Shown here piece by piece: positions 627 through 61,916 of a stretch of 64,000 nt of DNA; positions within the stretch are counted from its first letter, which is position 1; each line of letters starts with the position of its first letter. The DNA is from Bacteroidales bacterium (lineage in GTDB: Bacteria > Bacteroidota > Bacteroidia > Bacteroidales > VadinHA17). The stretch lies in NCBI GenBank assembly GCA_003141895.1, contig PLNT01000023.1, positions 1 to 64,000 of the forward strand. Reading direction: 5' to 3'. Both the position numbers and the translations under genes were made by a program. A model generated the notes under the pieces. That model did no database searches and was not told the DNA's origin. It worked only from the letters and a program-made list of their open reading frames with translations.

Positions 627-1304
627 ATGAGTATCTGGATAATTTTTATAGGATTTATGATCCTTAGCTGGATTGTAAGCATGACATTAAAAGCAAAATT
701 CAGTAAATATTCAAAAGTATTACTTGATAATGGCATGTCAGGAAAGGATGTTGCGGAAAAAATGCTGCGCGACAATGGAATAACAGATGTAAGAATCGTA
801 AGTGTAGAGGGTCAGCTGACCGATCACTATAATCCTGCTGACAAGACAGTAAATCTCAGTCCCGATGTATATAGCGGTCGTAATATTTCAGCAGCAGCTG
901 TTGCTGCACATGAATGCGGGCATGCTGTTCAGCATGCAAAAGCTTATGCATGGCTAGGATTCAGATCGAAACTCGTTCCGGCTGTCAGCTTTAGTTCGAA
1001 ATGGGTTCAGTGGATATTACTTGCAGGCATTCTTACAGTGAGGACTTTCCCGGCATTATTACTTGCCGGGATTGTACTGTTTGCACTGACAACTATCTTC
1101 AGCTTCATTACATTACCTGTTGAAATTGATGCAAGCCGGAGGGCTCTGGCCTGGATGTCAAATGCAGGTATAACATCATATCAGAATCATAATCTGGCAA
1201 AAGATGCTCTGAAGTGGGCTGCTTATACATATGTAATTGCTGCTTTAGGTTCCCTGGCCACTTTGTTATACTATATAATGATATTTACGGGGACGAGGAG
1301 GTGA
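627..1304 (+). CDS. YugP-like membrane zinc metallopeptidase
   Basis: Member of the Zn_peptidase_2 (YugP, DUF2268-unrelated) family of membrane metallopeptidases; the substrate is unknown. An N-terminal TM segment (about 3-22) is followed by a conserved cytosolic region, the HECGH zinc motif at residues 95-99, two central TM segments (about 122-162), a downstream Glu in LPVEIDASRRA (E166) that fits the third zinc ligand, and a C-terminal TM. The length of 225 residues is normal. An unusually good ribosome binding site (GGAGG, about 10 bases upstream) fixes the start. It is a single-gene unit ending in the family A repeat at 1302. Confidence 0.9.
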   Translation: MSIWIIFIGFMILSWIVSMTLKAKFSKYSKVLLDNGMSGKDVAEKMLRDNGITDVRIVSVEGQLTDHYNPADKTVNLSPDVYSGRNISAAAVAAHECGHAVQHAKAYAWLGFRSKLVPAVSFSSKWVQWILLAGILTVRTFPALLLAGIVLFALTTIFSFITLPVEIDASRRALAWMSNAGITSYQNHNLAKDALKWAAYTYVIAALGSLATLLYYIMIFTGTRR

Positions 1305-1433
1305 CCCCCTCGCCCTTGCTTCTTGGCCCCCCTGCCCCCCTAAAGGGGGGTTAATTCTCAGTCTTTACCAAGTTCATCAAGGACTCCGAATTAGTCCCCT
1401 TTTAGGGGGACAGCCGCGAAGCGGGAGGGGGCG
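1302..1433. repeat. Family A paired palindromic repeat
   Basis: Two C/G-rich arms in inverted orientation. The left arm at 1302-1350 includes CCCCCCTAAAGGGGGG; the right arm at 1393-1433 includes CCCCTTTTAGGGGG and CCGC-gaa-GCGG. Together they fill the gap between two convergent genes, so transcripts from either side would end in stable hairpins. Confidence 0.75.
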
Positions 1434-1471
1434 TTAATAGTGGTAAAGGCAAGGGGATAAGTACATAGGCT

Positions 1472-2209
1472 CTATCTCCCTTCCACCTCAAACCATTTTG
1501 TCCGCTTATGTATTGTCCTGATGATAAGCCATATCAGACCACCTGAGACAAACAAATAAATCCACATTTCTGTCATATAGATGCGCTCGGAAAGAAAATA
1601 GTTCCTGAAAAGATCTAGCACGGCGAAAATGACAAAAATATTTACAAAGCTGTTGTATTCTCTTTTAAGTACATTTTTAACAGAGAATGGAAGATTGGGT
1701 GATACGTATTTAAAAGAATATGGAATAATGGATTTTACGTTTTCTGACCATTTATCATAAATATCACCGAATTTTCTCCTGAGAAATTGCTCTTCTGCAA
1801 ACATAATGCGCTCATAATATAACCAGTATATGAGTATGAAAACTAAAGTGACCCCGAATGATCGAAGAAAAAGAACCGGCCCAAGCCACATAAAGAAATT
1901 TCCCAGATACAGAGGATGACGTATTATAGAATATATTCCTGTAACATTCAGTTTATCTGCTAGTTGTCCGTCAGTAGTATTTCTGCCTGACGTATTTTTT
2001 GGTGTGAAACCTACAGTTAATATTCTTATAATCTGACCAAAGAGGCTAACACCAAGAAAGATTAGTTCATCCCGCATGTCAAATAGTATTGCCTGCCTGT
2101 TGCCCAGATACATCATACCAATACCAGCTATGATTATGAACAATGGGAGCCAGCTTCTTCTTTTAAATAACCAGTTTCCGCTTTTTTCAAATTCGTGTAC
2201 CAGGGCCAT
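1472..2209 (-). CDS. Isoprenylcysteine methyltransferase-type membrane methyltransferase (possibly lipid A phosphate methyltransferase)
   Basis: Integral membrane protein of 245 residues. The central motif GIYSIIRHPLYLGNF (about 91-105) followed by E-E-Q-F-L-R-R-K-F-G-D-I-Y-D-K-W is the SAM-binding hallmark of the ICMT/PEMT superfamily. Hydrophobic segments occur near residues 20-40, 48-66, 103-130, 185-205 and 214-232. Bacterial relatives modify lipids or lipid A phosphates; the N-terminal FEKSGNWLFKRRSWLP resembles LmtA-type lipid A 1-phosphate methyltransferases, but I cannot separate that from other members by eye. The gene is single and convergent with the zinc peptidase. Confidence 0.75.
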   Translation of the reverse strand: MALVHEFEKSGNWLFKRRSWLPLFIIIAGIGMMYLGNRQAILFDMRDELIFLGVSLFGQIIRILTVGFTPKNTSGRNTTDGQLADKLNVTGIYSIIRHPLYLGNFFMWLGPVLFLRSFGVTLVFILIYWLYYERIMFAEEQFLRRKFGDIYDKWSENVKSIIPYSFKYVSPNLPFSVKNVLKREYNSFVNIFVIFAVLDLFRNYFLSERIYMTEMWIYLFVSGGLIWLIIRTIHKRTKWFEVEGR

Positions 2210-2311
2210 TTTTTGATTTTTAGTGATGGGTCAAAAGTATAAAAAATCCCGAAACAGATCGGATCTATTGAAATTTGAAGAATCCTGATGTCTTAATCTA
2301 GAAAGATTTTT

Positions 2312-2319
2312 TATCTTTA
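2312..2319 (+). promoter_or_regulatory. Weak -7-like box (TATCTTTA)
   Basis: Differs from TAnnTTTG only at the last base and lies 26 bases upstream of the GH16-like gene start. It is the best candidate in an otherwise AT-rich 136-bp gap. Confidence 0.35.
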
Positions 2320-2345
2320 TCAGTTGTACCTAAATCTTTTTTACA

Positions 2346-3959
2346 ATGGCAAGTCTCAAGCTTTTACTGGGAATGATCCCATCGACTTCTAAGATCGAGC
2401 AGACTGAAAATGCTTTGATTACTGAATTTGAGAAGCTTCACCTATTTTCTGAATCTGAAGTACTGGCTGATTACACCAAGCTAAACGGGCTTGTAAATTC
2501 CTCAGATTTTCTTCAGAAGTGTAAAGAAATCAAGGCCCTCCGGTATAAGGACTCCGAAGAATATTCAAAAGAGAAAGAGTTTCTTTCCCTCCAGAAAGCT
2601 AAAGATATTGTGCTCTATTTTAAGACACTCTCAGGAAATTCTCTGAAAAGATTCAACGAAATGGAAAGTTCAGATAAAATCAAAGAGTTTGAGGAACTTG
2701 AGAAGTTTATCGGATCTCCGGCATTCCTGGAAAAACAGAAAATGAGACCAATTACCTTTAAGGATACTGACGAATATCGTCAACTAAATGAGTTTAAATC
2801 TCTCAAATCCAACCCTGAAGTAAAATCTTATTTAAAATCAAAAAAGAAAGATGAGATTAAGAAATCCAAATCAATTTTAAGATTTGAAGAGCTTCAGTCA
2901 CTGGTAAACTCAGCTGAATTCCTTGCCAAAAAACGGATGAAGCCCATAACTTTCAAAGATTCCGAAGAATATAAAAAGCTTCTTGAATACAAAAGATTGA
3001 AGGGAACACTGGAAATAAAAGAATTCTACCGCTTTAAAAATTCCAAAGAATATGCAAACTATCTCAGTACCTATGGATCTGCTCGGATTAAAAGGTATGA
3101 AGAACTCAAAGAATATATTGCCACACCAGAATTTAAGCAAAGAAAAGAATATCTCCTCGACAAGAAAAAGTTCGAAAAAAGCGAGTTGTATAAGGACTCA
3201 CAGGAATACATAAAGCTTAAGAAAAGTCCAGACATTATCTGGTATTTTAAAGTTAAAGACTCTGATAAATTCAATATTCTCAAAAGTCGTGAGCTTACAT
3301 TCTTCGATGAATTTGAAGGAGACAAGCTTGATACAAAAAAATGGTTGACAAATTACTACTGGGGTGAGAAATTATTGAAAGACAGGTATACTGTTGAATC
3401 AGATCTGCAGGCATATACTGAAAAAGATAATTTTGAAGTACGCAACAGCGTTCTGAAAATAAATACAAAACCCCAAAAAGTCTCCGGGAAAGTCTGGTCC
3501 GCATTAAATGGCTTTACGAAAAAGGATTTTGATTACACATCAGGTCTTATCAATACCGGAACCAGTTTCAGACAGAAGTATGGGATCTTCCGTGCAAAAA
3601 TAAAGCTGGGAAACGCCGATACAAGAAACGCATTCTGGATGTTAGCCGATAAGATTACACCGCATCTCGATATTTGCCGTACCTCCGGAGGTAAAGTATG
3701 GTTTGACTATTTCTCTTCCAAAGGGAATATCACAAAAACTTCGCTTGGATCTAAATATTCAAATGACTACTTTATCTATACCCTGGAGTGGACATCCGAT
3801 AAACTTATCTGGAAAATTAACAATACAGAAATTTATACCCAAACTTCAGATGTTCCACAGGAACCGATGTATGTACTTCTTGCTGGCGGACTAAATAAAC
3901 CGATCAGCGGATCAACATCAATGGAAATAGATTGGGTCAGGGTTTATAAAACCAAGTAA
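2346..3959 (+). CDS. Cytosolic four-repeat protein with a catalytically degenerate GH16-like domain
   Basis: A protein of 537 residues without a signal peptide. Residues about 28-318 hold four imperfect charged, helical repeats of about 70-75 residues. Their consensus is roughly FEEL-x3-V-x-S-x-EFL, then FKDSEEY-x-KL-x-EYK-x-LK, then a YFK/K-rich end. Residues about 316-537 form a concanavalin-like GH16 domain (LTFFDEFEGDKLDTKKW at the start, MEIDWVRVYK at the end). At the active-site strand, where GH16 enzymes have E-x-D-x-x-E, this protein reads HLDICR (440-445): the Asp is kept but both catalytic Glu are lost. It probably binds something rather than hydrolysing glucans. The function is unknown, and the repeats do not match a family I can name. 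Confidence 0.75.
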   Translation: MASLKLLLGMIPSTSKIEQTENALITEFEKLHLFSESEVLADYTKLNGLVNSSDFLQKCKEIKALRYKDSEEYSKEKEFLSLQKAKDIVLYFKTLSGNSLKRFNEMESSDKIKEFEELEKFIGSPAFLEKQKMRPITFKDTDEYRQLNEFKSLKSNPEVKSYLKSKKKDEIKKSKSILRFEELQSLVNSAEFLAKKRMKPITFKDSEEYKKLLEYKRLKGTLEIKEFYRFKNSKEYANYLSTYGSARIKRYEELKEYIATPEFKQRKEYLLDKKKFEKSELYKDSQEYIKLKKSPDIIWYFKVKDSDKFNILKSRELTFFDEFEGDKLDTKKWLTNYYWGEKLLKDRYTVESDLQAYTEKDNFEVRNSVLKINTKPQKVSGKVWSALNGFTKKDFDYTSGLINTGTSFRQKYGIFRAKIKLGNADTRNAFWMLADKITPHLDICRTSGGKVWFDYFSSKGNITKTSLGSKYSNDYFIYTLEWTSDKLIWKINNTEIYTQTSDVPQEPMYVLLAGGLNKPISGSTSMEIDWVRVYKTK

Positions 3960-3989
3960 AACATAACCAGCAAATCTATCTGATTAATT

Positions 3990-4018
3990 GTAGAGACGCC
4001 CAAATTGGACGTCTCTAC
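3990..4018. repeat. Family B palindrome
   Basis: A 29-bp near-palindrome with ends GTAGAGACG / CGTCTCTAC and centre CCCAAATTGG. It lies 30 bases past the stop codon of the GH16-like gene. There is one unpaired position (GGAC against GCCC). Confidence 0.75.
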
Positions 4019-4065
4019 GTATCTTTAGGACTCCCAAAATTCTGATTTTGTTTAACAGCTGTTAC

Positions 4066-4093
4066 AGACGCCTGATTTGGGCGTCTTTTATTT
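4066..4093 (+). terminator. Hairpin followed by T-rich tract
   Basis: Arms AGACGCC (4066-4072) and GGCGTCT (4080-4086) enclose TGATTTG and are followed by TTTATTTT. The shape is that of an intrinsic terminator for the GH16-like gene. The stem shares sequence with family B, so it may be a truncated copy put to this use. Confidence 0.55.
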
Positions 4094-4103
4094 TGTCAGG
4101 GAT

Positions 4104-4130
4104 TGTAACTTTTTATAATTTAAATCCGTC
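4104..4130 (+). promoter_or_regulatory. ECF-type promoter (TGTAAC - 17 bp - CGTC)
   Basis: The -35 element TGTAAC is at 4104-4109 and the -10 element CGTC at 4127-4130, separated by 17 bp. The AAC / CGTC pair is the usual ECF sigma promoter pattern. The start codon of the ECF sigma gene is 21 bases downstream, so this is the expected autoregulated promoter. I noticed no second copy with this spacing in the window. Confidence 0.6.
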
Positions 4131-4150
4131 TTAGGAACGTAATTCTTGTT

Positions 4151-4636
4151 ATGACAGTAAAGGAATATAACAAATCTGTGGAAGACTTTGCAGATTCAGT
4201 GTACCGGTTCATCCTGGGAAACCTTAAGGATGAGGAGAGGGCAAGCGATATAGTGCAGGATAGTTTTGAAAGGCTCTGGAGAAATGTTGCAGAAATTGAA
4301 TTTGTTGTTGTTAAATCATGGTTGTTCTCGACTTCCTATCATATCATGATTGATATTCTCAGGAAAGAGAAAAGAATGACGAAACTTGAACTTTGTCATG
4401 AAAAAGAATTGATTCATGAATTCCATTATTCCGATCTTGATGAAATTCTCCACAAGGCATTGGATAATCTGCCGGAACAGCAAAGAACCTTGGTCCTGCT
4501 CAGGGATTATGAAGGTTATAGCTATAAAGAGATAGGTGAAATTACAGGGTTGAGTGAAAGCCAGGTAAAAATAAATATATACAGAGGACGAGTCTCTTTA
4601 AAAAATTACATAGGAAAGATCGAAACAGTATTATAA
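4151..4636 (+). CDS. ECF-type RNA polymerase sigma-70 factor
   Basis: 161 residues with the two-domain ECF layout. Region 2 (about 10-80) contains DIVQDSFERLWRN and the promoter-melting stretch KSWLFSTSYHIMIDILRKEKR. Region 4 (about 98-155) contains LPEQQRTLVLLRDYEGYSYKEIGEITGLSESQVKINIYRGR, cut here into its helix-turn-helix parts. There is no region 1.1 or 3. The stop codon TAA overlaps the ATG of the next gene by one base, which implies coupled synthesis with its membrane partner. It is likely released by an envelope signal and reads its own promoter at 4104. The target genes beyond this operon are unknown. Confidence 0.93.
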   Translation: MTVKEYNKSVEDFADSVYRFILGNLKDEERASDIVQDSFERLWRNVAEIEFVVVKSWLFSTSYHIMIDILRKEKRMTKLELCHEKELIHEFHYSDLDEILHKALDNLPEQQRTLVLLRDYEGYSYKEIGEITGLSESQVKINIYRGRVSLKNYIGKIETVL

Positions 4637-5739
4637 TGATGCAGATAAACAGGTCAAATTACGAAATATGGTTTATCGATTGGCTCGATGGGAATCTGAA
4701 TGATATTCAGGTTGAAAAACTTATGCAATTTCTTAAAGAGAACCCTGACCTAAAAGAAGAATTCAACGAAACAGGCACAATAAAACTTAACCCTTCGGAG
4801 AAATCATTCCCCCATAAAAATCATCTGAAGAAATCAACTGCAAATATTACAGAATCGCAGTTTGAATACCTCTGCGTAGCATACACGGAAAATGATCTTT
4901 CAGCAGAACAATGTTCAGAACTGAAGGAAATAGTTGATCATGATCCGGGAAAACGTAAAATATTTGATTTATTCAGGAAAACGAAACTTTCTCCGCCAGA
5001 GGTTTTATATAAAGGTAAAAAAATACTAATAAAAAGGACCATTGGTCAGAATGTCATAAGGCTTGCAATAGTCGGATTATCTGCAGTTGCAATTACTGTT
5101 TTTAGCATCATTGCCTTTAATACAAAAAGCAATATTCTTTCTGACAAATCTGAAAAAACTGCTCAGAATATACAGTCTTCCGTAGGGAACGGTCGCGACC
5201 GTTCTCTACAATTGGATTACAGCTCAAATGGCTCCAAAAAAATAATATCTGACGCAGGTAGACGTATTGCATTAAATCGTTTTCCACAACCTGCTAAAAT
5301 GACCAATCCTGCAGTAAAAAACCTTCCTCCACAGCAAGACTCTTTGCCCACGCTTCCTGTCAGACCTTCTATTATCATTGAAAAAGTAATTTTTTCATCG
5401 GATATAATTCTGGAAGGCAGAGAAATCTCCCGAACCATTGTTGCCTTGAATCCTAATATCGTAATTCCTTCAGATTATGATAACGGTCAATCCAGATTCA
5501 GCAAGTTCATTTCAAAAGCTTTCCGGGAAAAACTGTTAAAAGAAAAAACACCAAAAGACAGCCCTCTTAAGGCTTACGAGGTTGCCAAAGCAGGTATTAC
5601 CGGACTTAATATGCTCCTTGGCTGGGAAATGGCTCTTGATGAAAGAAAAGATGAAAATGGTAAACTAAAATCGGTCTATTTCAGTTCAAAGATCCTGAAA
5701 TTTAATGCGCCGGTGAAAAAAGGTGAACCAGTTAAGTAA
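4636..5739 (+). CDS. Putative membrane-anchored anti-sigma factor
   Basis: 367 residues. The N-terminal NYEIWFIDWLDGNLND...VEKLMQFLKENPDLKEEF (from residue 8) resembles the cytosolic sigma-binding segments of Bacteroidota anti-sigma proteins, and a second similar segment follows at about 76-110. One TM helix lies at about 140-161, and the remaining 200 residues should be periplasmic. The conserved C-terminal part (about 245-367) is of unknown fold. Codons for residues 183-192 are a family B palindrome that keeps the frame (VGNGRDRSLQ), placed in the low-complexity linker just after the TM. The assignment rests on gene order and topology, not on a named domain. Confidence 0.7.
   Translation: MMQINRSNYEIWFIDWLDGNLNDIQVEKLMQFLKENPDLKEEFNETGTIKLNPSEKSFPHKNHLKKSTANITESQFEYLCVAYTENDLSAEQCSELKEIVDHDPGKRKIFDLFRKTKLSPPEVLYKGKKILIKRTIGQNVIRLAIVGLSAVAITVFSIIAFNTKSNILSDKSEKTAQNIQSSVGNGRDRSLQLDYSSNGSKKIISDAGRRIALNRFPQPAKMTNPAVKNLPPQQDSLPTLPVRPSIIIEKVIFSSDIILEGREISRTIVALNPNIVIPSDYDNGQSRFSKFISKAFREKLLKEKTPKDSPLKAYEVAKAGITGLNMLLGWEMALDERKDENGKLKSVYFSSKILKFNAPVKKGEPVK
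5182..5209. repeat. Family B palindrome inside a coding sequence
   Basis: A 28-bp palindrome with arms GTAGGGAACGGTCG / CGACCGTTCTCTAC, in frame within the putative anti-sigma gene (residues 183-192). It is nearly identical to the copy at 45225, which is intergenic. This suggests the family can insert without destroying a frame. Confidence 0.75.
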
Positions 5740-5795
5740 CTTTTCAGATGTCTTCTCCGTCCTACCAAAAACAAAGAACAACTATTAAATTTACT

Positions 5796-6731
5796 ATGAT
5801 GAAAAAGATTGGAACTATAATCGTGCTTATTGCAATAATTATGATTGGATACTGTCAGGGGATATCAGCTGATACTCAAACCACCGAAAGCCAGGGAACT
5901 AAGGTTAACAAAGACGAATCAACTAAAGTAGAAATTGGCAATGACCTGGTGAGTGTAGAGAAAAATGATTCTGTATCTGACATTAAGGTTGGAAACAATG
6001 AATTAAGTGTCCTTGAATCTTTGGAAGGCCACAAATATCGCTTCAAAAAACATTCAGATGATGATGAGAACCCGGATTACAGATATTTTGATAGCAGAAG
6101 AAACAGATTCAGAGGACATTGGGCAGGAATTGAGTTAGGATTAAACAATTATGTAACGTCTGACAGAAGTATGGTCTTACCCGATGATATTGATTACATG
6201 ACACTCCATTCGGGCAAGTCAACCAATTTCAATATCAATTTCACGCAATTAAGTCTTGGAATTACCCGTCATATTGGCTTCGTTACCGGGCTGGGCCTCA
6301 ATTGGAACAATTATAGGTTTGACGGCAATAACAATATTATAAAGGGCGCCAATGGTGTCATTGAAGAACTGGATCCAGGTACTAATCTTAAAAAATCAAA
6401 ACTCGCAACCCTCTTTATGACATTTCCATTTATGCTTGAGATGCAATTACACATCAATCACAATAATCTCAGCCTGGCCGCAGGACCGATTGGTGCAATA
6501 AAACTGTCATCTCATACAAAAATGGTACTTGAAGACGGAGATAAAATCAAATCCAACGGCGACTTCAGTTTAAACATGCTTCGTTACGGTTTTACAGGAC
6601 GTGTTGGCTATGGAAATTTTCAACTTTATGGAACGTATTATAAGACCCCTCTTTTCGCTACTGGAAAAGGCCCGGGCGGTGTTAATCTTTATCCTTTTGA
6701 AATAGGAATAGCACTTACTTTTAATGATTAA
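5796..6731 (+). CDS. Outer membrane beta-barrel-like protein
   Basis: About 311 residues from the ATG at 5796 (another ATG follows at 5799). The frame is open from 5748, but the N-terminal signal peptide MKKIGTIIVLIAIIMIGYCQG begins only here, so the shorter start is preferred. After an acidic, polar linker (about 25-95) come alternating short amphipathic strands (HWAGIELGLNNYV, FTQLSLGITRHIGFVTGLGLNW, MLRYGFTGRVGYGNFQLYGTYY) ending in FEIGIALTFND. These are typical of small Bacteroidota beta-barrels (PorT/OmpW-like class). It is third in the sigma/anti-sigma operon and is probably the envelope component or a target of that system. Confidence 0.7.
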   Translation: MMKKIGTIIVLIAIIMIGYCQGISADTQTTESQGTKVNKDESTKVEIGNDLVSVEKNDSVSDIKVGNNELSVLESLEGHKYRFKKHSDDDENPDYRYFDSRRNRFRGHWAGIELGLNNYVTSDRSMVLPDDIDYMTLHSGKSTNFNINFTQLSLGITRHIGFVTGLGLNWNNYRFDGNNNIIKGANGVIEELDPGTNLKKSKLATLFMTFPFMLEMQLHINHNNLSLAAGPIGAIKLSSHTKMVLEDGDKIKSNGDFSLNMLRYGFTGRVGYGNFQLYGTYYKTPLFATGKGPGGVNLYPFEIGIALTFND

Positions 6732-6761
6732 TTTATTTTTCATTCCTGTCAATTTTTTGAT

Positions 6762-6793
6762 GTAGTTGAGACGCCAAAATCGGGCGTCTCTAG
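6762..6793. repeat. Family B palindrome, degenerate
   Basis: Arms GAGACGCC (6768-6775) and GGCGTCTC (6783-6790) within a GTAG...CTAG frame. It lies between the beta-barrel gene and the promoter of the AsmA-like gene. Without a T-tract it is not a clear terminator. Confidence 0.65.
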
Positions 6794-6832
6794 CCTTCTG
6801 AAATAAAAGAACCATTTTTAATCCAAATGAGT

Positions 6833-6840
6833 TAACTTTG
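6833..6840 (+). promoter_or_regulatory. TAnnTTTG -7 box for the AsmA-like gene
   Basis: TAACTTTG matches the -7 consensus exactly. The predicted transcript start is near 6846 and the leader about 30 bases. Confidence 0.55.
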
Positions 6841-6878
6841 CTCACGGGTGATTCGCGGATGGAATTTCTTTTATTTCA

Positions 6879-9476: not shown

Positions 9477-9565
9477 TAAATAGTTTTTAAAGCATAATAA
9501 AAAGTTTGGCGTAATCTAAAACCCATTATCATATTTAGTCACAAGGATCTTGCCTGTTTTTATAA

Positions 9566-9573
9566 TAACTTTG
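9566..9573 (+). promoter_or_regulatory. TAnnTTTG -7 box for the histidine kinase gene
   Basis: TAACTTTG ends four bases before a GTG start codon, so transcription probably begins at that codon (leaderless mRNA). Confidence 0.5.
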
Positions 9574-9577
9574 GAAA

Positions 9578-10717: not shown

Positions 10718-10728
10718 ATTCTAATTAC

Positions 10729-12046: not shown

Positions 12047-12156
12047 CACCCCCTGCCGCTGTGCGGCTGTCCCCCTAAAGGGCGACTAATACTATAATAT
12101 GTATGAGACTTTTTTAAGTCACCGGATTTACCTCCCTTTAGGGGGGCAGGGGGGCC
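12047..12156. repeat. Family A paired palindromic repeat
   Basis: The left arm at 12047-12086 contains GCCGC-tgt-GCGGC (12055-12067) and CCCCCTAAAGGGCG. The right arm at 12132-12156 contains CTCCCTTTAGGGGGG. It fills the gap between the convergent U32 and mnmH genes. Confidence 0.75.
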
Positions 12157-34624: not shown

Positions 34625-34775
34625 GAAACCCCTCTGCCGCTTCGCGGCATCTCCCCTAACGGGGCGAAAATACTCTTCTTTTTTATTGATATTATCTTCC
34701 GTCCTGGATTTTTTCCCCCCTTGGGGGGAAATTAAAAGGGGGTTCTTGAGAAGAGTGGAAATTAAAAGGGGGGTG
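34625..34775. repeat. Family A paired palindromic repeat with direct repeat
   Basis: The left arm contains TGCCGC-ttc-GCGGCA (34635-34649) and CCCCTAACGGGG. The right part has CCCCCCTTGGGGGG and two 16-bp direct copies of GGAAATTAAAAGGGGG (34727-34742 and 34757-34772). It lies between the convergent acyl-CoA ligase and superoxide dismutase genes. Confidence 0.75.
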
Positions 34776-40250: not shown

Positions 40251-40325
40251 ACCCCCTTTCATTTACCCCCAGGGGGGAAAGGTTTTGATTCTCCTTCCCC
40301 CGTGGGGGAAGGTTGGGAAGGGGGT
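40251..40325. repeat. Family A palindromic repeat
   Basis: Three C/G blocks: CCCCCTTTC, then CCCCCAGGGGGG, then the perfect palindrome CCTTCCCCCGTGGGGGAAGG (40293-40312), then GGGAAGGGGGT. It lies between the convergent lspA and ArsR genes. The other part of this gap (40155-40250) has no recognisable element. Confidence 0.7.
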
Positions 40326-43169: not shown

Positions 43170-43290
43170 CACCCCCTCCCGCTTCACGGGGTTCCCCTAA
43201 AGGGGGACAAATTCACGGACTTTAATAGAACTATCTCAAATACGGGGTTTTACTTCCCCATTGGGTAGTACCCGAAGGGCGAGGGGGTTT
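43170..43290. repeat. Family A paired palindromic repeat
   Basis: The left arm holds CCCGcttcaCGGG and CCCCTAAAGGGGG; the right arm holds CCCATTGGG and CCC-gaa-GGG with a GAGGGGGT end. This is the only copy between divergent genes (MFS carrier and CoA-binding protein). Confidence 0.75.
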
Positions 43291-48576: not shown

Positions 48577-48728
48577 ACCCCCTTCCCGCTAAAGTGGGAC
48601 TCCCCCTGAAGGGGGAGAAAATTTCTTATTTGATAATATTCTCTTTCTTCTTAATGAAGAGAAATTTTTATACCATTTCGATTTTTCTCCCCCAGTGGGG
48701 AGATGTCAGCGAAGCTGACAGAGGGGTC
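48577..48728. repeat. Family A paired palindromic repeat
   Basis: The left arm at 48577-48624 has CCCGCtaaaGTGGG and TCCCCCTGAAGGGGGA. The right arm at 48688-48728 has CCCCCAGTGGGG and TGTCAGC-gaa-GCTGACA (48704-48720), then AGAGGGGT. It lies between convergent HAD and uvrC genes. The remainder up to 48872 is AT-rich without features. Confidence 0.75.
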
Positions 48729-50734: not shown

Positions 50735-50850
50735 AAACCCCCTTGCCCTTCGGGCACTCCCCCTGAGCGGCCTAACGGGGGGGGCAAAATCCTATTATAT
50801 CAGGGTCAACTCGCCCCTTTAAGGGAGATGTTGCGAAGACAAAGGGGTTT
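50735..50850. repeat. Family A paired palindromic repeat
   Basis: The left arm has GCCC-ttc-GGGC and CCCCCTGAGCGGCCTAACGGGGGG; the right arm has CCCCTTTAAGGG and a decayed TGTTGC-gaa-GACAA ending in AGGGGTTT. It lies between co-directional ade and uvrC, so it may separate the two in one message. Confidence 0.7.
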
Positions 50851-52469: not shown

Positions 52470-52496
52470 ATATTTATTTTTGAAAATAAAAATAAT

Positions 52497-52512
52497 TGTT
52501 CCACGTGGAACA
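52497..52512. other. parS-like chromosome partition site (perfect palindrome)
   Basis: TGTTCCACGTGGAACA, a perfect 16-bp palindrome that fits TGTTNCACGTGNAACA. It directly abuts the mnmG stop codon and lies in the 43-bp gap before ade. The second site is 3.6 kb away. ParB spreading from parS marks the origin region in most bacteria. Confidence 0.85.
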
Positions 52513-55212: not shown

Positions 55213-55269
55213 AACTTGTTAACTGCCAACCATTATACTTAAATATTCAGAATTTGTTACACAAATCAA

Positions 55270-56448
55270 TCAGTTTTTTGAAATCCATGATTCAGGATCA
55301 AGTTTTTCCTTCTCTTCGAATATCATAAACTTCAAAATTGATTTATTTCCATTATCAGTTTCACAAAACACGTTTCCTAATTCCTGCTTCGTATTAACTT
55401 TATCTCCCGGTTTAACTTTTAAATCTACAATATTTTGATAAACTGAAAGATATTTACCATGCCTTACAATTACAGTCATGTTTGCTCCTTCTATAAAAAA
55501 CACCTTAGCTACCTCTCCTTTGAAAACACTTCTAACTGCTGTTTTACCAAGACTAGTAATCTCTATTCCAATATTATTTTCAGTAACATATTTCAATACC
55601 GGATGTTTTTGAATGCCAAACTGACTTGTAATAATGCCTTTTTCAACAGGCCATGGTAATCTTCCCTTGTTCTCTGCAAAGTTTTCTCCTATCAGTTTCT
55701 GTTCAGGTGTGTTGTCAGATTTTACAATCTTCTTTCTTTCCTCCTCTATTATTCGTGCAATTTCACTTTCAATTTTTTCAGCAATCTTCTTTTTTTCCTC
55801 AAGGTCCTTCTTCAACTGTTTTTCCTTCTTACTTAATGATTTAACCATTTGCTGTTTCCTCTCTTGCTCAGTTTGTAAAAGATACTTCTGTTGTTCTTCC
55901 CTTGATTTCAGGACAGATATCCTTTCTAAATCATTCTGCAACCGGTCCTTTGTAACCTGAATCTGCTCTTTCAGTTCCATTATTATCTCAGATTCCCTTC
56001 TTCTGAATTTGGTTACCTGCTGTAAATATTTCAAACGTTTATAACCCTGATTAAAATCTTTAGCAGATAAAATATATACTAGCTCAGGATTTTCTTTCAT
56101 CGACCTATATGAATTTACAACCGCCCGAGCGTAATCCTTTTTTAATTCAATAAGATCGTTCTCCATCATATTTATTGCAACTGTATTAAGATCAATCCGT
56201 TCAGTTACAAGGTTAATTTCATCGCGCATTCCTTTTATTACTGATTCCCGTAAATTTAATTTGTTTCCTATTATTTTTATTTCATTCATGCTTTCTTCCC
56301 TTTTCTTAGTAGTAGATTTCAGCATATTATCTACATAATTAATTTCATTCAGGGTTGAATTTCTTTTTTGTTCCAATTCAGCCTTTGTTTGTGCAGACAG
56401 GTTGCAAAAAATAATACTAAACAAGAAACCAGTCAAAAAGTATTTCAT
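55270..56448 (-). CDS. EnvC-like murein hydrolase activator with degenerate LytM domain
   Basis: 392 residues. The signal peptide MKYFLTGFLFSIIFCNLSAQ is followed by a long coiled coil (about 22-250, heptads rich in K/E/L) and a C-terminal LytM/M23-like domain (about 268-392: KGIITSQFGIQKHPVL, VIVRHGKYLSVYQNI, GNVFCETDNGNKSILKFMIFEE). Active M23 enzymes bind zinc through HxxxD and HxH. Here these positions read NIGIE and VYQN, so zinc binding is lost. EnvC of E. coli is likewise inactive and activates amidases at the division site; the same role is likely. It overlaps the DUF4292 gene by four bases. Confidence 0.88.
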   Translation of the reverse strand: MKYFLTGFLFSIIFCNLSAQTKAELEQKRNSTLNEINYVDNMLKSTTKKREESMNEIKIIGNKLNLRESVIKGMRDEINLVTERIDLNTVAINMMENDLIELKKDYARAVVNSYRSMKENPELVYILSAKDFNQGYKRLKYLQQVTKFRRRESEIIMELKEQIQVTKDRLQNDLERISVLKSREEQQKYLLQTEQERKQQMVKSLSKKEKQLKKDLEEKKKIAEKIESEIARIIEEERKKIVKSDNTPEQKLIGENFAENKGRLPWPVEKGIITSQFGIQKHPVLKYVTENNIGIEITSLGKTAVRSVFKGEVAKVFFIEGANMTVIVRHGKYLSVYQNIVDLKVKPGDKVNTKQELGNVFCETDNGNKSILKFMIFEEKEKLDPESWISKN

Positions 56449-57209
56449 AAAAGTTCAATTAATTCATAGCCTCTGCCGGGAATAAAATTTAAATTTCCGG
56501 TCCATGGTAACTGTACTTTCATAATTTTAATCCTTACACCAATGTTATATTGACTATCATTAAATTCAATTATTTTAGGTATTAATATACCAGACACATT
56601 AAAGAATTTTTTATACTTAATATTCATTCCTGGCTGATTGTAACTATTTACCTGATTAGCAGACATTACTTTTCCCCTTTTACAGTCAATCACGTAATTT
56701 AGTAAAACTCCTTTTAATTGACACCCGAAGATTAACTTATCCCCCATGCATCTCTCACCACCAGTTTCACAATTTTTATCCAAAATTAAATCGCCAAAAA
56801 TAATCGGTAAAAAACTCTGTGAAAATCCATATTTCTTTATAAGGTAACCTGAGGTCCCTAAGTACAATTTCTTATTAATCCGGTCATTCATTTGTATACT
56901 GTCACCCGAAATTAATATCCTGCCTCCTTCTATACCAGTTCTGCTTCTTAAACTTATCAGATATTTGTTAGGCTTCTCAAACTTTATATTTGCAGTAAAT
57001 TTATTGTTACCTTCTGAAGTTAAAACTTCAATTTCTGCTTTCTGAATAAAAAATCCACTATTTGTAATGTTTTGATTTTCTGTATCTCCTAAAACGTTTC
57101 CCTTAATAAAATTATTAGGATTATCACTCAAAGTTTTTCCGCTGCTTCTAACTACAGAACACCCTGTAACAACCAATCCTAAAAAAATTATGCCTGCTAT
57201 TTTCCGCAA
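56445..57209 (-). CDS. DUF4292 lipoprotein
   Basis: 254 residues. The lipoprotein signal MRKIAGIIFLGLVVTG is followed by C17. The mature part has a LolA/LolB-like pattern (KFTANIKFEKPNKYLISLRSRTGIEGGRILISGDSIQMNDR) typical of DUF4292, a Bacteroidota family. The start must be TTG: no ATG occurs before the lipobox, and the TTG at 57209 lies inside the end of the TPR gene (13-base overlap). With the TPR and EnvC-like neighbours it forms a conserved envelope triplet. The exact role is unknown. Confidence 0.88.
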   Translation of the reverse strand: MRKIAGIIFLGLVVTGCSVVRSSGKTLSDNPNNFIKGNVLGDTENQNITNSGFFIQKAEIEVLTSEGNNKFTANIKFEKPNKYLISLRSRTGIEGGRILISGDSIQMNDRINKKLYLGTSGYLIKKYGFSQSFLPIIFGDLILDKNCETGGERCMGDKLIFGCQLKGVLLNYVIDCKRGKVMSANQVNSYNQPGMNIKYKKFFNVSGILIPKIIEFNDSQYNIGVRIKIMKVQLPWTGNLNFIPGRGYELIELL

Positions 57210-58921
57210 TTTTCAATTTCTTTAATTAATTCAGTTTTAGTACTGTCGAGCTTTAAGGCTATATTCCAGTTAGTTACAGCATCTGCACATTTTCTTTCCC
57301 TCATCAGAATATATCCATAATGCTCATACCATACAGGATCAGGCTTTTCTCCGCTCTTTATTATTGATTCAAACACTCTCGCTGCCTCCTGAAGCTTTCC
57401 TCTTTTATATAGAACCCATCCATAGGTGTCGAGAAAAGTAGTATTACCCTTATCCTTTTCAATAGCCTTTTTCGCCATTTCTTCTGCCTCTTTCAGTTTT
57501 GTATTTTGCTGTGCAAGATAATAAGCATAGTTATTAATGACAGTAAGATCTTCGCTATTGTTTTTTAATGCTAATTCAAATGCTTCGAAAGATTTAGGAT
57601 AATCTTTCATTCTATAATAGACGTCTGCACGCATTGTCAGAACCTGAGTCAGAGAATCCTTATTGTTTCCTGCCAGTATCTCTGCTTTTTTTAATTCATC
57701 AATCGCGATTGAGTATTTCCCAGTTTCAACTGCCGCATTCGCATATAATAATTTTGCTGTAAATGAAATATTAAACCTGGTTGCACATTCTTCTCCCCTT
57801 GATAATAATTTATTATAATCTTTCATTTGAAGATAAACGAAAAGAAGTTTTTCCCATGCATAATAATTGTCAGGGTTTATCTTAATTAGTTCTTCTAGTC
57901 GCAGAACTGCATCATCCAGTTTATTTTGCTTAACCATTAATTCTGGCCGAAGTAAAGGGATAATATTATCCCCACTGTAATTTGCTTCGAATACCAATAA
58001 TGTAACAACAAGTTTGTCCTGCAAATCTTTTGTCAGATCTGGCAATTCTATTATACGTGCCATTAATGATATCTCGCTTTCGCGGTCAACTTTAATATTT
58101 AATATTGTTTTATTAAGAAGCAGAAATAATTCATTATAACTTTTTACTGATATCAAAAAGTCACACAGTGCTAACTGAACCTGTGGATTATCCGGATTCT
58201 CATCTAAAAGCTTATTAAATACATCGAGAGCTTTTTGATTATCATCTTTCCCCTTATATATATCGGCAAGAAGCCCCTTGAATAATATTTCATCAGGAAA
58301 TTCTTTCACCAGAGATAATGTTTTACCTAATGCGTCATCGTACTTTCCTTCTGCCATAAGGTTTTTTATCGAAGAAAGGGTCGATTTTTCGTTCACTCCG
58401 TACTTCTTATCAAATGCATCGAAAATCTCATCTGCCTTTTCATAATTTTTATCTTCAGAATAAAGGTTTCCGAGAGTTAACTGCAGATCTTCCTTTTCAG
58501 GAAATAGTTTTACAGCTCTTTCATAGTAGATTAAGGAACTGTCCAGATCTTTTTCCTGATAGTACAATCCTGCCAGCATAGTAAGATACCAGATGTTATC
58601 CGGATCAAAAGACAACGCTTTGCTGACATATTTTTTACCCGTTCTTATATCCCCATTTGCAATTACAATCTGAGCCATCTGATAATAAGCAGCATCGCTT
58701 CCAGGATTTAATTTCAGGCACTGCTCCAGAAATTTTAAGGCATCTCCCCCATTTCCCAATAATTTTTGCTTAAGTGCTTCAACGTAAATTTCGTTATATG
58801 CTGCTGAATCCAAATCTTTTGATTTATTCCTTGTTTCAGACGGAGCGATACTTTTCCCGCAAGAAAAAAAAATCAATATAAAGAGTGCTAAAAAAACAAA
58901 ATAATATCTATATAATTTCAT
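57197..58921 (-). CDS. Tetratricopeptide repeat lipoprotein
   Basis: 574 residues. The signal MKLYRYYFVFLALFILIFFS is followed by lipobox C21. About twelve TPR-type helical pairs fill the rest, clearest at 52-125 (GGDALKFLEQCLKLNPGSDAAYYQ, SKALSFDPDNIWYLTMLAGLYY) and 440-560. It probably acts as a protein-protein scaffold on a membrane surface. It is the first gene of the minus-strand series down to uvrC. The 258-bp divergent gap upstream (58922-59179) contains the cyclophilin promoter on the other strand; I could not find a clear TAnnTTTG box for this side. Confidence 0.88.
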   Translation of the reverse strand: MKLYRYYFVFLALFILIFFSCGKSIAPSETRNKSKDLDSAAYNEIYVEALKQKLLGNGGDALKFLEQCLKLNPGSDAAYYQMAQIVIANGDIRTGKKYVSKALSFDPDNIWYLTMLAGLYYQEKDLDSSLIYYERAVKLFPEKEDLQLTLGNLYSEDKNYEKADEIFDAFDKKYGVNEKSTLSSIKNLMAEGKYDDALGKTLSLVKEFPDEILFKGLLADIYKGKDDNQKALDVFNKLLDENPDNPQVQLALCDFLISVKSYNELFLLLNKTILNIKVDRESEISLMARIIELPDLTKDLQDKLVVTLLVFEANYSGDNIIPLLRPELMVKQNKLDDAVLRLEELIKINPDNYYAWEKLLFVYLQMKDYNKLLSRGEECATRFNISFTAKLLYANAAVETGKYSIAIDELKKAEILAGNNKDSLTQVLTMRADVYYRMKDYPKSFEAFELALKNNSEDLTVINNYAYYLAQQNTKLKEAEEMAKKAIEKDKGNTTFLDTYGWVLYKRGKLQEAARVFESIIKSGEKPDPVWYEHYGYILMRERKCADAVTNWNIALKLDSTKTELIKEIENCGK

Positions 58922-59127
58922 AATTACATTTTACCAGTATGTCCAAATCTTCAGACAATTGATGCTTAGACTTGTTTATTACTTTTACAATCATTTCAAT
59001 ATTCAAAACAAAATCAAAACTAATTGACAAATATACTGCTAAAGGCTTTAACAATACATTTCAACAATTGAATTGATCAAAATATTACAATTTGAAAATC
59101 AAATTTCCTGTAATGCTCAAAGTTAAA

Positions 59128-59135
59128 TATCTTTG
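59128..59135 (+). promoter_or_regulatory. TAnnTTTG -7 box for the cyclophilin-pheS operon
   Basis: TATCTTTG, exact match. The predicted start is near 59142 and the leader about 40 bases. Confidence 0.6.
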
Positions 59136-59179
59136 CAAACACATTTACAGAATTTTTCTTAACCAATTTTATACGATTC

Positions 59180-59995
59180 ATGAACTTTTACTTAAAAAAG
59201 TCAGTATTTCTTCTTTGTCTGCTTTCTCTTATTTCATGTAAGTCTCCATCAGGTAATGAAAATTCGATGGTTCTTGTCAAAACCTCTCTTGGCGACATGA
59301 AGATAAAGTTATATGACAGTACTCCAGTACATCGCGATAATTTCATTCATCTTGTAAATTCTCACTTTTATGATGGTATTTCATTTCATCGTATCATAAA
59401 GAATTTCATGATCCAGGCTGGCGATCCCGAAACTAAATCAGGCTCTTCAAAAAACCTGCCAGATTCTTTAAAAACATATACAATTCCGGCAGAATTCAAT
59501 AACCTCTATTTTCATAAGAAAGGAGCTTTGGCTGCAGCGCGCCAGGGCGATGATGTTAATCCTCATAAGAGATCTTCCGGAACCCAGTTTTACATTGTCC
59601 AGGGGGTAAAGCTTTCTGATGATGAATTAAATCAACTGGAGCAACGAATTAACAGTATTATGAAACAGGGTAAATTTAACACCTTTATAAAAGCTACAAC
59701 CGATAGTGTCCGAATGACTGGAAAAGAGGCTACTGACGCAGAAATCCAGCAGATAGCTTCAATTAAAATGTTTCAGTTTCTATCATCATATAAAGATTTC
59801 AGGTTATCTGAAGAGGAACGAAATATTTACAAAACATTGGGGGGCACTCCCCGTCTTGACGGTAGCTATACGGTGTTTGGTGAAGTAATTGAAGGTCTTG
59901 ATATTATTGATAAAATTGCGGAAGTGCCTACTGACACCAATGATAAACCTTTGAACGATATAAAAATTTTGAAAATAAAAATTGTAAAGAACTGA
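59180..59995 (+). CDS. Cyclophilin-type peptidyl-prolyl isomerase, lipoprotein
   Basis: 271 residues. The signal MNFYLKKSVFLLCLLSLIS is followed by lipobox C20. The cyclophilin core is split: the first half has FYDGISFHRIIKNFMIQAGDP and GALAAARQGDDVNPHKRSSGTQFYIV, then about 65 inserted helical residues (about 142-212), then GGTPRLDGSYTVFGEVIEGLDIID. The catalytic Arg is in SFHRIIKNF. It should act on proline bonds of exported proteins. The stop codon overlaps the pheS start by one base, an odd partner for an envelope foldase. Confidence 0.92.
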   Translation: MNFYLKKSVFLLCLLSLISCKSPSGNENSMVLVKTSLGDMKIKLYDSTPVHRDNFIHLVNSHFYDGISFHRIIKNFMIQAGDPETKSGSSKNLPDSLKTYTIPAEFNNLYFHKKGALAAARQGDDVNPHKRSSGTQFYIVQGVKLSDDELNQLEQRINSIMKQGKFNTFIKATTDSVRMTGKEATDAEIQQIASIKMFQFLSSYKDFRLSEEERNIYKTLGGTPRLDGSYTVFGEVIEGLDIIDKIAEVPTDTNDKPLNDIKILKIKIVKN

Positions 59996-61032
59996 TGCTT
60001 CAAAAAATTACTGATCTGTTACAGGAGGTATCCTCCATCTCGGTTAAAAACTCTGAAGAGCTCGAATTGTTCCGTTTAAAATATCTTAGTAAAAAAGGAC
60101 TGATTTCCGATCTGTTTGAAGATTTTAAAGATGTACCTGGTTCGCAGAAAAAGGAAATTGGTCAGAAGCTCAATTTATTGAAGCAGAGTGCTCTTAAGAA
60201 ATTTAATCTGCTCAAAACCGAACTTCAGAATCAGGATGAGAAAACAGATATCGATTTTTCCCGGCCGGCCTTTCCATATAATTTAGGATCACGTCATCCT
60301 ATATCCATAGTAAGAAATGAGCTTATAGATATATTCACCAGAATTGGTTTTACTGTATCAGAGGGACCTGAGATTGAAGATGATGATCACGTCTTCACAA
60401 AACTGAATTTTGCACCTGAGCATCCTGCGAGAGATATGCAGGATACCTTTTATATTTCTCGCTTATCACTTGAAGATTCTAATCCTGAGGATATACTTTT
60501 ACGAACCCACACTTCTTCTGTACAGGTGAGAGTTATGCAAAACCAAAAGCCCCCGATACGTACTATCTCCCCCGGACGAGTTTTCCGCAATGAAGCTATT
60601 TCTGCACGTGCTCATTGTATCTTTCATCAGATTGAGGGCTTATATATAGATGAGAACGTTTCTTATGCTGATTTGCGTCAAACCCTGCTGTTTTTTGCAA
60701 GGGAATTGTTTGGTAAGGAGACTAAAATCAGACTGCGTCCATCATATTTCCCGTTTACAGAACCTTCCGCTGAAATGGATGTTAGCTGCAAGATTTGCGG
60801 TGGAAAGGGTTGTAACGTATGCAAACATACAGGCTGGCTTGAAATCCTTGGATGCGGTATGGTACATCCAAATGTGCTTGAAGCCTGTAATATTGACAGC
60901 AAAAAATATACTGGTTTTGCATTCGGGATGGGCATTGAGCGTGCAGCTATGTTAAAATACGGAGTAAATGATCTGCGCTTATATTTTGAAAACGATCTGA
61001 GGTTTCTTGATCAGTTTAAAAGCGCGTTTTGA
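59995..61032 (+). CDS. pheS: Phenylalanine--tRNA ligase alpha subunit
   Basis: 345 residues. An N-terminal coiled coil (about 1-90) binds tRNA. The class II catalytic domain has the motif 2 region RTHTSSVQVRVM...RVFRNEAISARAHCIFHQIEG, a Cys-rich insertion (CKICGGKGCNVCKHTGW) and motif 3 GFAFGMGIERAAMLKYG. It joins phenylalanine to tRNA-Phe as part of an alpha2beta2 enzyme; pheT is not adjacent and must lie elsewhere. Translation is coupled to the cyclophilin gene upstream (TGATG). Confidence 0.96.
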   Translation: MLQKITDLLQEVSSISVKNSEELELFRLKYLSKKGLISDLFEDFKDVPGSQKKEIGQKLNLLKQSALKKFNLLKTELQNQDEKTDIDFSRPAFPYNLGSRHPISIVRNELIDIFTRIGFTVSEGPEIEDDDHVFTKLNFAPEHPARDMQDTFYISRLSLEDSNPEDILLRTHTSSVQVRVMQNQKPPIRTISPGRVFRNEAISARAHCIFHQIEGLYIDENVSYADLRQTLLFFARELFGKETKIRLRPSYFPFTEPSAEMDVSCKICGGKGCNVCKHTGWLEILGCGMVHPNVLEACNIDSKKYTGFAFGMGIERAAMLKYGVNDLRLYFENDLRFLDQFKSAF

Positions 61033-61076
61033 ATTGAATATTTGAAATAATAAATAAAATAAGCAGAGGAGACGAA

Positions 61077-61787
61077 ATGAAACAACAAGAAATTCAGACC
61101 CCGCTTTGTGACAGTTGCTCTCTCAAAACAGGGTCAATTTTCAAATACCTTACACCTGATGAAGCTGAGACTCTTAACTTTGCTAAAGATTTCCGTCAAT
61201 ATAAAAGGGGTGATATTCTTTATCAGGAAGGTAACCGGATAAGCGGATTTTTTTGTATTCATAGAGGGATAATAAAAGTATTTAAGACAGGCTTTGACGG
61301 TAAGGAACAAATAATAAGATTTGCGAAGGACGGTGATATTATTGCATACAGGAGCGTTCTCAGCAATGAGCTCGCATGTACTTCTGCAAAAGTTATTGAA
61401 GATTGCCAGGTATGTTTTATCCCTTCGGAAATCCTGGTTTCTTTCATTAAAACTAACCCTGCATATGCACTTGAGCTGCTTAAGCTTGCCTGTCATGAAC
61501 TGGGAGAAGCAAATTCCTTTATAACAGATATAGCACAGAAGACTGTAAGAGAACGGCTGGCAGAGGTTCTTCTTTTCCTGGTAAATGATTTTGGAATTGA
61601 CAATGATCAATTTCTCAATATCTCACTTACCCGGGAGGAACTGGCCAACATAGTCGGGACAGCAACGGAATCAGTTATCAGGTTATTATCAGAGTTTAAA
61701 TCAGATAAACTGGTGGAACTGAATGGCAGAAAAATCAGGATATTGAATAAAAAGGGCCTGGAGAAGATCAGTAATGTTTTTAATTGA
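61077..61787 (+). CDS. Crp/Fnr family transcriptional regulator
   Basis: 236 residues. The cNMP-like beta-roll (about 25-145) has FRQYKRGDILYQEGNRISGFFCIHRGIIKVF. The C-terminal HTH_Crp domain has SLTREELANIVGTATESVIRLLSEFKSDKLV. The N-terminal CDSC (C11, C14) could be part of a metal site, but only two Cys are clustered. A purine-rich ribosome binding site (AGAGGAGA) six bases upstream makes this one of the better initiation sites here. It is a different paralogue from the one at 19.4 kb. It ends at a family A repeat, convergent with ruvB. Confidence 0.88.
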   Translation: MKQQEIQTPLCDSCSLKTGSIFKYLTPDEAETLNFAKDFRQYKRGDILYQEGNRISGFFCIHRGIIKVFKTGFDGKEQIIRFAKDGDIIAYRSVLSNELACTSAKVIEDCQVCFIPSEILVSFIKTNPAYALELLKLACHELGEANSFITDIAQKTVRERLAEVLLFLVNDFGIDNDQFLNISLTREELANIVGTATESVIRLLSEFKSDKLVELNGRKIRILNKKGLEKISNVFN

Positions 61788-61916
61788 GGACCCCCTTGCC
61801 CTTCGGGCACTCCCCCCAAGGGGGGAGAAATAAATCCCTTAAATAGACGAGCCGCTCCCTACACTACCGGCAGGCATGCTTTAGGGGAGATGTCGCATAG
61901 CGACAGAGGGGTTTCT
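61788..61916. repeat. Family A paired palindromic repeat
   Basis: The left arm has GCCC-ttc-GGGC (61798-61808) and TCCCCCCAAGGGGGGA (61811-61826). The right arm has TTTAGGGGA, TGTCGC-ata-GCGACA (61891-61905) and AGAGGGG. It lies between convergent Crp/Fnr and ruvB genes and is the clearest example of the family. Confidence 0.8.

What the first reader, a model, noticed from the sequence alone, without database searches (positions are those of the whole stretch)
1302..61916. Family A: paired C-rich palindromes in every convergent gap over 100 bp, with compensating changes in the inner hairpin
Nine loci (8, 1302, 12047, 34625, 40251, 43170, 48577, 50735, 61788) share the layout aaaCCCCCT - small hairpin - CTCCCCC-taaa-GGGGGA, mostly as two copies in inverted orientation 50-110 bp apart. 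The small hairpin keeps a TTC or GAA (or similar) three-base loop, but its stem differs: GCCC/GGGC, GCCGC/GCGGC, TGTCAGC/GCTGACA, TGTCGC/GCGACA, CCGC/GCGG. Changes on one side are matched on the other, which points to selection for structure. Six of nine lie between convergent genes, and the convergent gaps without one are all 30 bp or shorter. This suggests a mobile or duplicating element used as a bidirectional terminator. I cannot name a described family.
Basis: partly seen in the sequence, partly recalled or inferred. Interest (0 to 1): 0.72.

Follow-up and report, generated by a model that had tools for sequence, protein, structure and literature searches.

The report
Mobile C-rich hairpin pairs between genes
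The window's paired C-rich palindromes belong to a large family of tiny, apparently mobile hairpin elements scattered through this bacterium's genome, with a signature that also occurs in unrelated bacteria; no enzyme that moves them was found, and they do not look like ordinary transcription terminators.

Summary
The palindromes are real and part of a large dispersed family. A covariance model from window arms gives 148 matches in the 4.0-Mb genome (150 of 998 candidates scored). A 1.26-Mb sample holds 81 loci in three main classes of about 76/91, 108 and 120 bp. Copies up to 97% identical sit in unrelated flanks. At the gap of element 61788, 27 of 27 examined congeners lack an intact copy. 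So they behave as mobile units, and insertion largely makes the long gaps. Convergent enrichment holds in the sample (1.8 per kb; tandem 0.5, divergent 0.3), but only 27 of 58 convergent gaps of 100 bp or more have one. No hairpin of 220 is followed by a U-tract, so standard intrinsic termination is unlikely. Inner-hairpin stems covary with almost no G-U, which fits upkeep at DNA level. PF01797 (RAYT-type transposase) has no match in the genome, and 21 same-genus loci with one carry other repeats. A degenerate 27-mer of one arm recurs in Clostridia, Rhizobiales and others, resembling rhizobial RIMEs (recalled). Closest kind: RIME/REPIN-like elements without a known transposase.

The parts
7..43 (-). 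single L-type arm (GCCC ttc GGGC inner hairpin) at the contig end; no partner in the contig
   Evidence: cmsearch 22.5 bits, E 0.0052; window starts at contig base 1
1325..1431 (.). M-class element (107 bp) in a convergent gap; a partial extra arm lies at 1305-1325
   Evidence: DNA fold z -4.2
12048..12155 (.). M-class element (108 bp) in a convergent gap
   Evidence: DNA fold z -4.9
34626..34744 (.). L-class element (119 bp) in the convergent gap between an AMP-binding enzyme gene and a Fe/Mn superoxide dismutase gene; a degenerate right-arm copy follows to about 34773
   Evidence: neighbours by Pfam; DNA fold z -3.1
40252..40324 (.). S-class element (73 bp), no inner hairpin, in a tandem gap
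   Evidence: DNA fold z -2.3
43171..43288 (.). L-like element in a divergent gap; DNA fold not beyond chance
   Evidence: DNA fold z -1.1
48579..48726 (.). L-class element (148 bp) in a convergent gap beside uvrC
   Evidence: DNA fold z -5.6
50736..50850 (.). L-class element in a tandem gap, looks decayed; DNA fold not beyond chance
   Evidence: DNA fold z -0.5
61790..61914 (.). L-class element (125 bp) in the convergent gap between a Crp-family gene and ruvB; contains what looks like a degenerate copy of the nested CCTGCC palindrome (my reading); no intact element at this site in 27 congeners
   Evidence: DNA fold z -2.9

Best explanation
Family A is a set of non-autonomous, mobile palindromic doublets of the RIME/REPIN type. 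Each unit is two C-rich arms in inverted orientation around a variable spacer; as a single strand it folds into an outer C/G clamp, one or two small side hairpins or bulges (the 'inner hairpin') and a central stem. The unit is copied as a whole into new intergenic places, most often 3' of genes, where insertion does least harm, and makes those gaps long. SHOWN: unit structure, copy number, unrelated flanks, sites without the element in congeners, no detectable target-site duplication, covariation, lack of U-tracts. INFERRED: movement by an enzyme acting in trans on the folded single strand. I guess a Y1/HUH-type nuclease, since such enzymes make no target duplication (recalled), but none was found: this genome has no PF01797 match, and the RAYT-type genes I looked at in congeners sit beside other repeats. 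Upkeep of the stems is most simply explained by constraint, or by template-switch repair, at the DNA level. Any effect on 3' ends or mRNA stability would be secondary.
For: 148 arm matches in G000 at E up to 1 (a lower bound). 81 loci in 1.258 Mb in three main classes, 74 of them at least 70 bp long. Of the 40 best same-class pairs printed (of 162), most are 90-97% identical over full length with flanks near background identity (mean 0.49, maximum 0.65 in 200 random pairs), e.g. C23:41178 and C23:70386; the two 99% pairs share flanks and are larger duplications, and two others have one flank slightly above the random maximum (0.72, 0.68). At 61788, 0 of 27 congeners have an intact element, 1 has what looks like a decayed arm. 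At the 34625 gap, 10 of 24 orthologous convergent gaps hold a C-rich palindrome, of differing kinds, which suggests repeated insertion (my reading). No excess of direct repeats of 4-9 bp at the ends. Closer to the upstream stop than to the next start in 26 of 32 tandem gaps. Helix 1 in the cross-phylum alignment: 127 both-side changes against 3 one-side. Degenerate search in which all combinations were allowed: inner pair A-T 69, G-C 13, G-T 1 of 83 (Fisher P about 3e-14).
Against: No mobilising enzyme found: PF01797 gives no match in G000 (96% complete, so a missed gene is possible); other transposase families were not surveyed except PF02371 (1 match). No movement was observed. Arm counts and PF01797 counts are at best weakly related in the genus (Spearman 0.24, P 0.25; without G000 0.38, P 0.07). 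No GTAG or CGTC tag at the rate expected of REPs. Six of 24 orthologous gaps at the 34625 site carry what looks like a canonical terminator instead (my reading), which leaves a terminator-substitute role possible there.
Confidence: 0.7

Rival explanations
1. Bidirectional transcription terminators: the elements are kept because they end transcription of convergent genes.
For: Strong convergent enrichment: of gaps of 100 bp or more, 27 of 58 convergent hold an element, against 34 of 242 tandem and 10 of 127 divergent (P 3e-7 and 5e-9). Strong RNA folds (z -3.2 to -6.1 for the six elements given). At the 34625 gap congeners have a C-rich palindrome (10 of 24), what looks like a canonical terminator (6 of 24) or neither (8 of 24) (my reading).
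Against: No U-tract after the hairpins (0 of 220). S-class outer ends are more A- than T-rich on both strands. L-class outer ends are somewhat T-rich (12 of 42 with 5 or more T in 8), the best case for termination. None of 27 congeners has an intact element at the 61788 site (gaps of 47 bp or less, not scanned for terminators). Predicted terminators are not clearly rarer in element gaps (convergent 6 of 27 against 18 of 56, tandem 2 of 34 against 31 of 292; in divergent gaps more common, 3 of 10 against 7 of 123, P 0.03). The same enrichment is expected if insertions near promoters are purged.
Confidence: 0.12
2. RAYT-mobilised REPIN population whose RAYT was lost from this genome or lies in the missing 4%.
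For: Same organisation as REPINs (inverted REP doublets, compensatory changes common; PMC3116915, passages seen). PF01797 matches in 21 of 24 same-genus relatives. No target duplication.
Against: [quoted passage not shown] 21 same-genus loci (of 61 same-genus matches) and 5 of the same order have no family-A arm (best E 0.26); the same-genus ones carry other palindromic repeats (by eye). The genome with most arms has no PF01797 match.
Confidence: 0.3
3. The matching stem changes arise by template switching inside inverted repeats during replication, without selection for structure.
For: Almost no one-side (G-U) changes in helix 1; unrelated palindromes are swapped into the same position; the mechanism is described in PMC8794818 (abstract and opening paragraphs).
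Against: A DNA-level or two-strand constraint also removes G-U, since G-U on one strand is A-C on the other; helix 2 does show U-G (44 cells); the mechanism alone does not explain dispersal.
Confidence: 0.35
4. MITE of a DDE transposase.
For: Short inverted termini, dispersed, no gene.
Against: No target-site duplication of 4-9 bp in 29 S, 22 M and 17 L elements; termini are themselves hairpins.
Confidence: 0.08

Closest known systems
RIME (Rhizobium-specific intergenic mosaic elements, Osteras 1995)
   Same: Doublets fetched from Rhizobium have the same kind of arm as the L class: CCCCTCTG, small hairpin with TTC or similar loop, CATCTCCCC, loop, GGGGGAG. RIMEs are cited as repeats of intergenic regions in S. 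meliloti (PMC2245857, PMC2573895, passages).
   Different: The RIME paper is not held, so identity of these doublets with RIME is recalled, not tested. Classes S and M and the nested 18-bp palindrome were not seen in the rhizobial doublets that I read. RIME is named as specific to Rhizobium; here the arm is in a genome of another group and in Clostridia.
REPIN / BIME with RAYT (PMC3116915 passages; PMC2817692 abstract)
   Same: Inverted REP doublets, variable spacer, hairpin-forming, intergenic, compensatory changes.
   Different: No PF01797 match in the genome; 21 same-genus loci with one carry other repeats; no GTAG tag.
CGTC-tagged REPs (PMC3733652, abstract and passages)
   Same: REP-like, mostly between convergent and unidirectional genes, no dedicated transposase known.
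   Different: No CGTC tag: 12 of 81 loci contain CGTC/GACG, below the random rate of 23%.
BrickBuilt MITEs of Porphyromonas gingivalis (PMC5771137, passages)
   Same: Named intergenic mobile repeats.
   Different: Their sequence was not seen and not compared.

Membership tests
REPIN (RAYT-mobilised) | two REPs in inverted orientation forming one hairpin unit | tested here: met
   68 of 80 S, M and L loci have a C-run at one end and a G-run at the other; folds (six of eight at z -2.3 or lower)
REPIN (RAYT-mobilised) | cognate RAYT gene in the genome | tested here: not met
   PF01797, 0 matches in G000; genome 96% complete
REPIN (RAYT-mobilised) | RAYT flanked by the same repeats | tested here: not met
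   26 loci with PF01797 (21 same genus, of 61 same-genus matches), no arm better than E 0.26; other palindromic repeats present in the same-genus ones
GTAG or CGTC REP super-families | tetranucleotide tag at one end | tested here: not met
   anywhere in the locus plus 10 bp: GTAG/CTAC in 30 of 81 (37%, random 28%), CGTC/GACG in 12 of 81 (15%, random 23%)
RIME | arm sequence and doublet layout of rhizobial elements | tested here: inconclusive
   same arm and doublet in Rhizobium loci; a Rhizobium doublet matches 57 plasmid records of rhizobia and kin, at most 54% of it covered in the 20 rows shown; RIME reference sequence not available to me
Intrinsic terminator | GC hairpin followed by U-tract | tested here: not met
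   0 of 220 hairpins with 6 or more T in the next 10
DDE-type MITE | target-site duplication | tested here: not met
   no excess of direct repeats of 4-9 bp at offsets 0-7
Rfam family | match at gathering score | tested here: not met
   0 matches in the window

The most novel reading that the evidence does not exclude
One pan-bacterial family of miniature palindromic doublets (the L arm: CCCCTCTG, small covarying hairpin, CATCTCCCC) has moved between phyla and is multiplied by a still unknown trans-acting enzyme that is not a RAYT; within it even smaller, 18- to 20-bp palindromes move as units into fixed positions of the hairpins.
Probability: 0.3. Interest if true: 0.8.

Novelty: new variant of a known kind. 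Interest (0 to 1): 0.5.

Why it matters
[quoted passage not shown] This genome gives a rich case: three classes, near-identical copies, congeners with and without elements at the same gap. The arm is shared with Rhizobium and Ruminococcus, among them genomes that are isolates by their titles. That makes the search for the mobilising enzyme, and the question whether such repeats cross phyla, directly testable.

Tried and rejected
RAYT link: PF01797 in G000 and relatives, arm search at 26 loci with a match, and tblastn of 12 RAYT-type fragments on 92 arm-bearing loci and on the own sample: negative. One of the 12 queries (L001) was translated in a wrong frame with stops and is void. A regex suggested that a RAYT in L006 had arms of the same plan; reading it showed a tandem array of another REP (AACCCCTCCGGGGTT), so I dropped it.

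Autonomous parent: S arms more than 110 bp apart were listed within 4 kb; the pairs found were 180 and 181 bp apart and non-coding by eye. Inverted L arms 300-2600 bp apart in the 80 foreign loci were listed but the reading frames between them were not examined; an IS3-like frame beside an arm in L167 was noticed (recognised from memory) and not followed. IS110-type transposase: one match in G000, not followed up.

My first regex caller merged arms wrongly and was replaced by nhmmer. The terminator test was my own script, as the tool call was over its size limit. Literature: searches by exact sequence and by concept gave listings in which I saw no description of these sequences outside rhizobia; one search listed 20 of 54 papers, 15 of 2,297, 10 of 65 and 8 of 24. 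The library holds open-licence papers only. A paper on Porphyromonas gingivalis repeats was searched for passages; it names BrickBuilt MITEs, sequences not seen.
Full report
WHAT IS THERE. The window is the first 64 kb of a 99.7-kb contig of a 4.01-Mb, 46-contig genome. C-rich sequence is present at all nine stated loci. A covariance model from seven window arms gives 148 matches at E up to 1 in the genome, with 150 of 998 candidates scored, so the true number is probably higher. In 1.258 Mb of this genome (window plus 60 fetched stretches) nhmmer with nine seeds finds 81 loci: 29 S (about 76 bp, or 91 bp with a nested palindrome), 29 M (about 108 bp), 22 L (about 120 bp) and 1 T. Seven of them (4 L, 3 M) are shorter than 70 bp and so fragments or single arms. 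The common plan is C4-6, X, C4-5, loop, G4-5, spacer, then a mirror arm. X differs: a small hairpin with a 3-base loop, a plain stretch (TTCTTATTT, TTTTAATTT, TTCCCAACCTT) or an 18-bp perfect palindrome. The two arms of one element are usually of different kinds, and L elements combine with at least three kinds of right arm (my reading). As single strands most window elements fold into an outer clamp, side hairpin(s) and a central stem; two of eight (43171, 50736) do not fold better than shuffles as DNA.

MOBILE UNITS. Of 162 same-class pairs with identity of 0.82 or more, the 40 best were printed. Most are S pairs of 0.90-0.97, and one is the L pair C23:41178/C23:70386 (0.96), with flanks near background identity (mean 0.49, maximum 0.65 of 200 random pairs). 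Two 0.99 S pairs share flanks and are larger duplications; two pairs have one flank just above the random maximum (0.72, 0.68). At the gap of element 61788 (Crp-family gene and ruvB), 30 congeners were searched and 27 gave an ortholog with the two genes convergent; their gaps run from -52 to 47 bp and none holds an intact element; G005 keeps what looks like one decayed arm. At the gap of element 34625, 26 of 30 congeners gave an ortholog and 24 of these the gene pair: by my reading 10 hold a C-rich palindrome of various kinds, 6 what looks like a canonical terminator, 8 neither. No excess of direct repeats of 4-9 bp shows at the ends in any class (29 S, 22 M, 17 L tested).

PLACEMENT. With my own gene calls (codon-usage filter, not a published caller) 75 of 81 loci lie in gaps, 4 overlap a called gene and 2 lie at contig ends. 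Density per kb of element-free gap: convergent 1.78, tandem 0.48, divergent 0.26. Gaps of 100 bp or more with an element: 27 of 58 convergent, 34 of 242 tandem, 10 of 127 divergent. The median distance is 30 bp to a stop codon and 84 bp to a start codon. PMC3733652 (abstract and passages) reports a preference for convergent and unidirectional gaps for REPs in general.

NOT A STANDARD TERMINATOR. None of 220 C-loop-G hairpins, read on both strands, is followed by 6 or more T in 10 bases; the mean is 1.9 T and 4.2 A. S-class outer ends are more A- than T-rich (4.5 against 3.4 in 10); L-class ends are T-rich (4.3 against 2.8; 12 of 42 with 5 or more T in 8). Predicted U-tract terminators occur in 6 of 27 convergent element gaps and 18 of 56 without, in 2 of 34 and 31 of 292 tandem gaps, and in 3 of 10 and 7 of 123 divergent gaps (gaps of 60 bp or more). 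A role in 3'-end formation by other means remains possible.

COVARIATION. Own-genome arms (88 distinct): 97 cells changed on both sides against 29.7 in shuffles, though two coarser measures are reached by 25 and 17 of 500 shuffles. Cross-phylum arms (111 distinct): 190 against 45.1, with helix 1 paired in 98.4% of cells, 127 both-side and 3 one-side changes; helix 2 does show U-G pairs. These alignments were fitted to the structure. A check free of that uses the degenerate search pattern, in which all combinations were allowed: of 83 distinct matches the inner pair is A-T 69, G-C 13, G-T 1; the outer pair is T-A in all 83, so only the inner pair is informative. The scarcity of G-U in helix 1 suggests that DNA, or both strands, is the level of constraint, or that template switching repairs the arms (PMC8794818, abstract and opening paragraphs).

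TRANSPOSASE. G000 has no PF01797 match; 34 of 41 genomes in the relatives search, own included, do. Twenty-one same-genus and five same-order loci with a match carry no family-A arm; the same-genus ones carry other palindromic repeats, by eye. Arm matches occur in 19 of 41 genomes, all of the own genus (18 of 24 relatives plus G000), and in 0 of 16 genomes from other families of the order (stricter filters, at most 150 candidates scored per genome). So two RAYT defining features fail where tested.

ACROSS PHYLA. Of the 80 loci listed, by title, 44 are Bacillota (mostly Clostridia), 31 Rhizobiales, and 1 each Asticcacaulis, Bacteroidetes MAG, Dehalococcoidia MAG, Deinococcales MAG and unnamed; several records come from one organism. 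The single MAG hits may be contamination. Doublets are seen in Rhizobium, Asticcacaulis and Clostridia with unrelated spacers. Twelve viral contigs also hold the pattern, four with a second arm within about 130 bases. A Rhizobium doublet finds 57 plasmid records, all of rhizobia and their kin by name; the window arm alone finds none in plasmids or phages at the settings used. Arm identity in distant groups with absence from neighbouring families suggests horizontal spread, but this is inference. The window's own phylum is not named by any search; Bacteroidota is my guess.

VERDICT. An abundant, structurally kept, apparently mobile palindromic family of RIME/REPIN kind, with the RAYT link tested and not met. 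New variant of a known kind.

Noticed in passing
L098:13588-13605 (own genome C8:93588) and many elements, e.g. C26:11355: An 18-bp perfect palindrome TCCCGATAGCTATCGGGA occurs 67 times in the genome and in 24 of the 41 genomes searched (own included), in 4 genera; by my reading it replaces 3 bases (GTT in S arms and in a tRNA-Gly-like fragment beside an intact tRNA-Gly; GGC in M arms).
   Followed up: partly
C23:41214, C23:70476, C26:229241, C26:114751, C26:319686: A 20-bp near-perfect palindrome CCTGCCTGCCGGTAGGCAGG sits in the C-loop-G hairpin of three L and two M elements; a degenerate copy seems to lie in the window element 61790-61914.
   Followed up: partly
L007-L026: RAYT-type genes of congeners carry their own palindromic repeats (CCGTCGGCTGAAGCCGACGG, AACCGCGGAGCGGTTTCAT, GGTGCAGAGCACC and others).
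   Followed up: no
C23:141071, C26:226896, C13:172021: Longer S derivatives (150-181 bp) share a second interior, seen in part as GAAGGCGCCAGACTGCCGCGTTAGCCACC.
   Followed up: no
contig ends C32:7, C26:70, C26:393713, C7:76: Several contigs end in or near these elements, so assembly seems to break at them.
   Followed up: no
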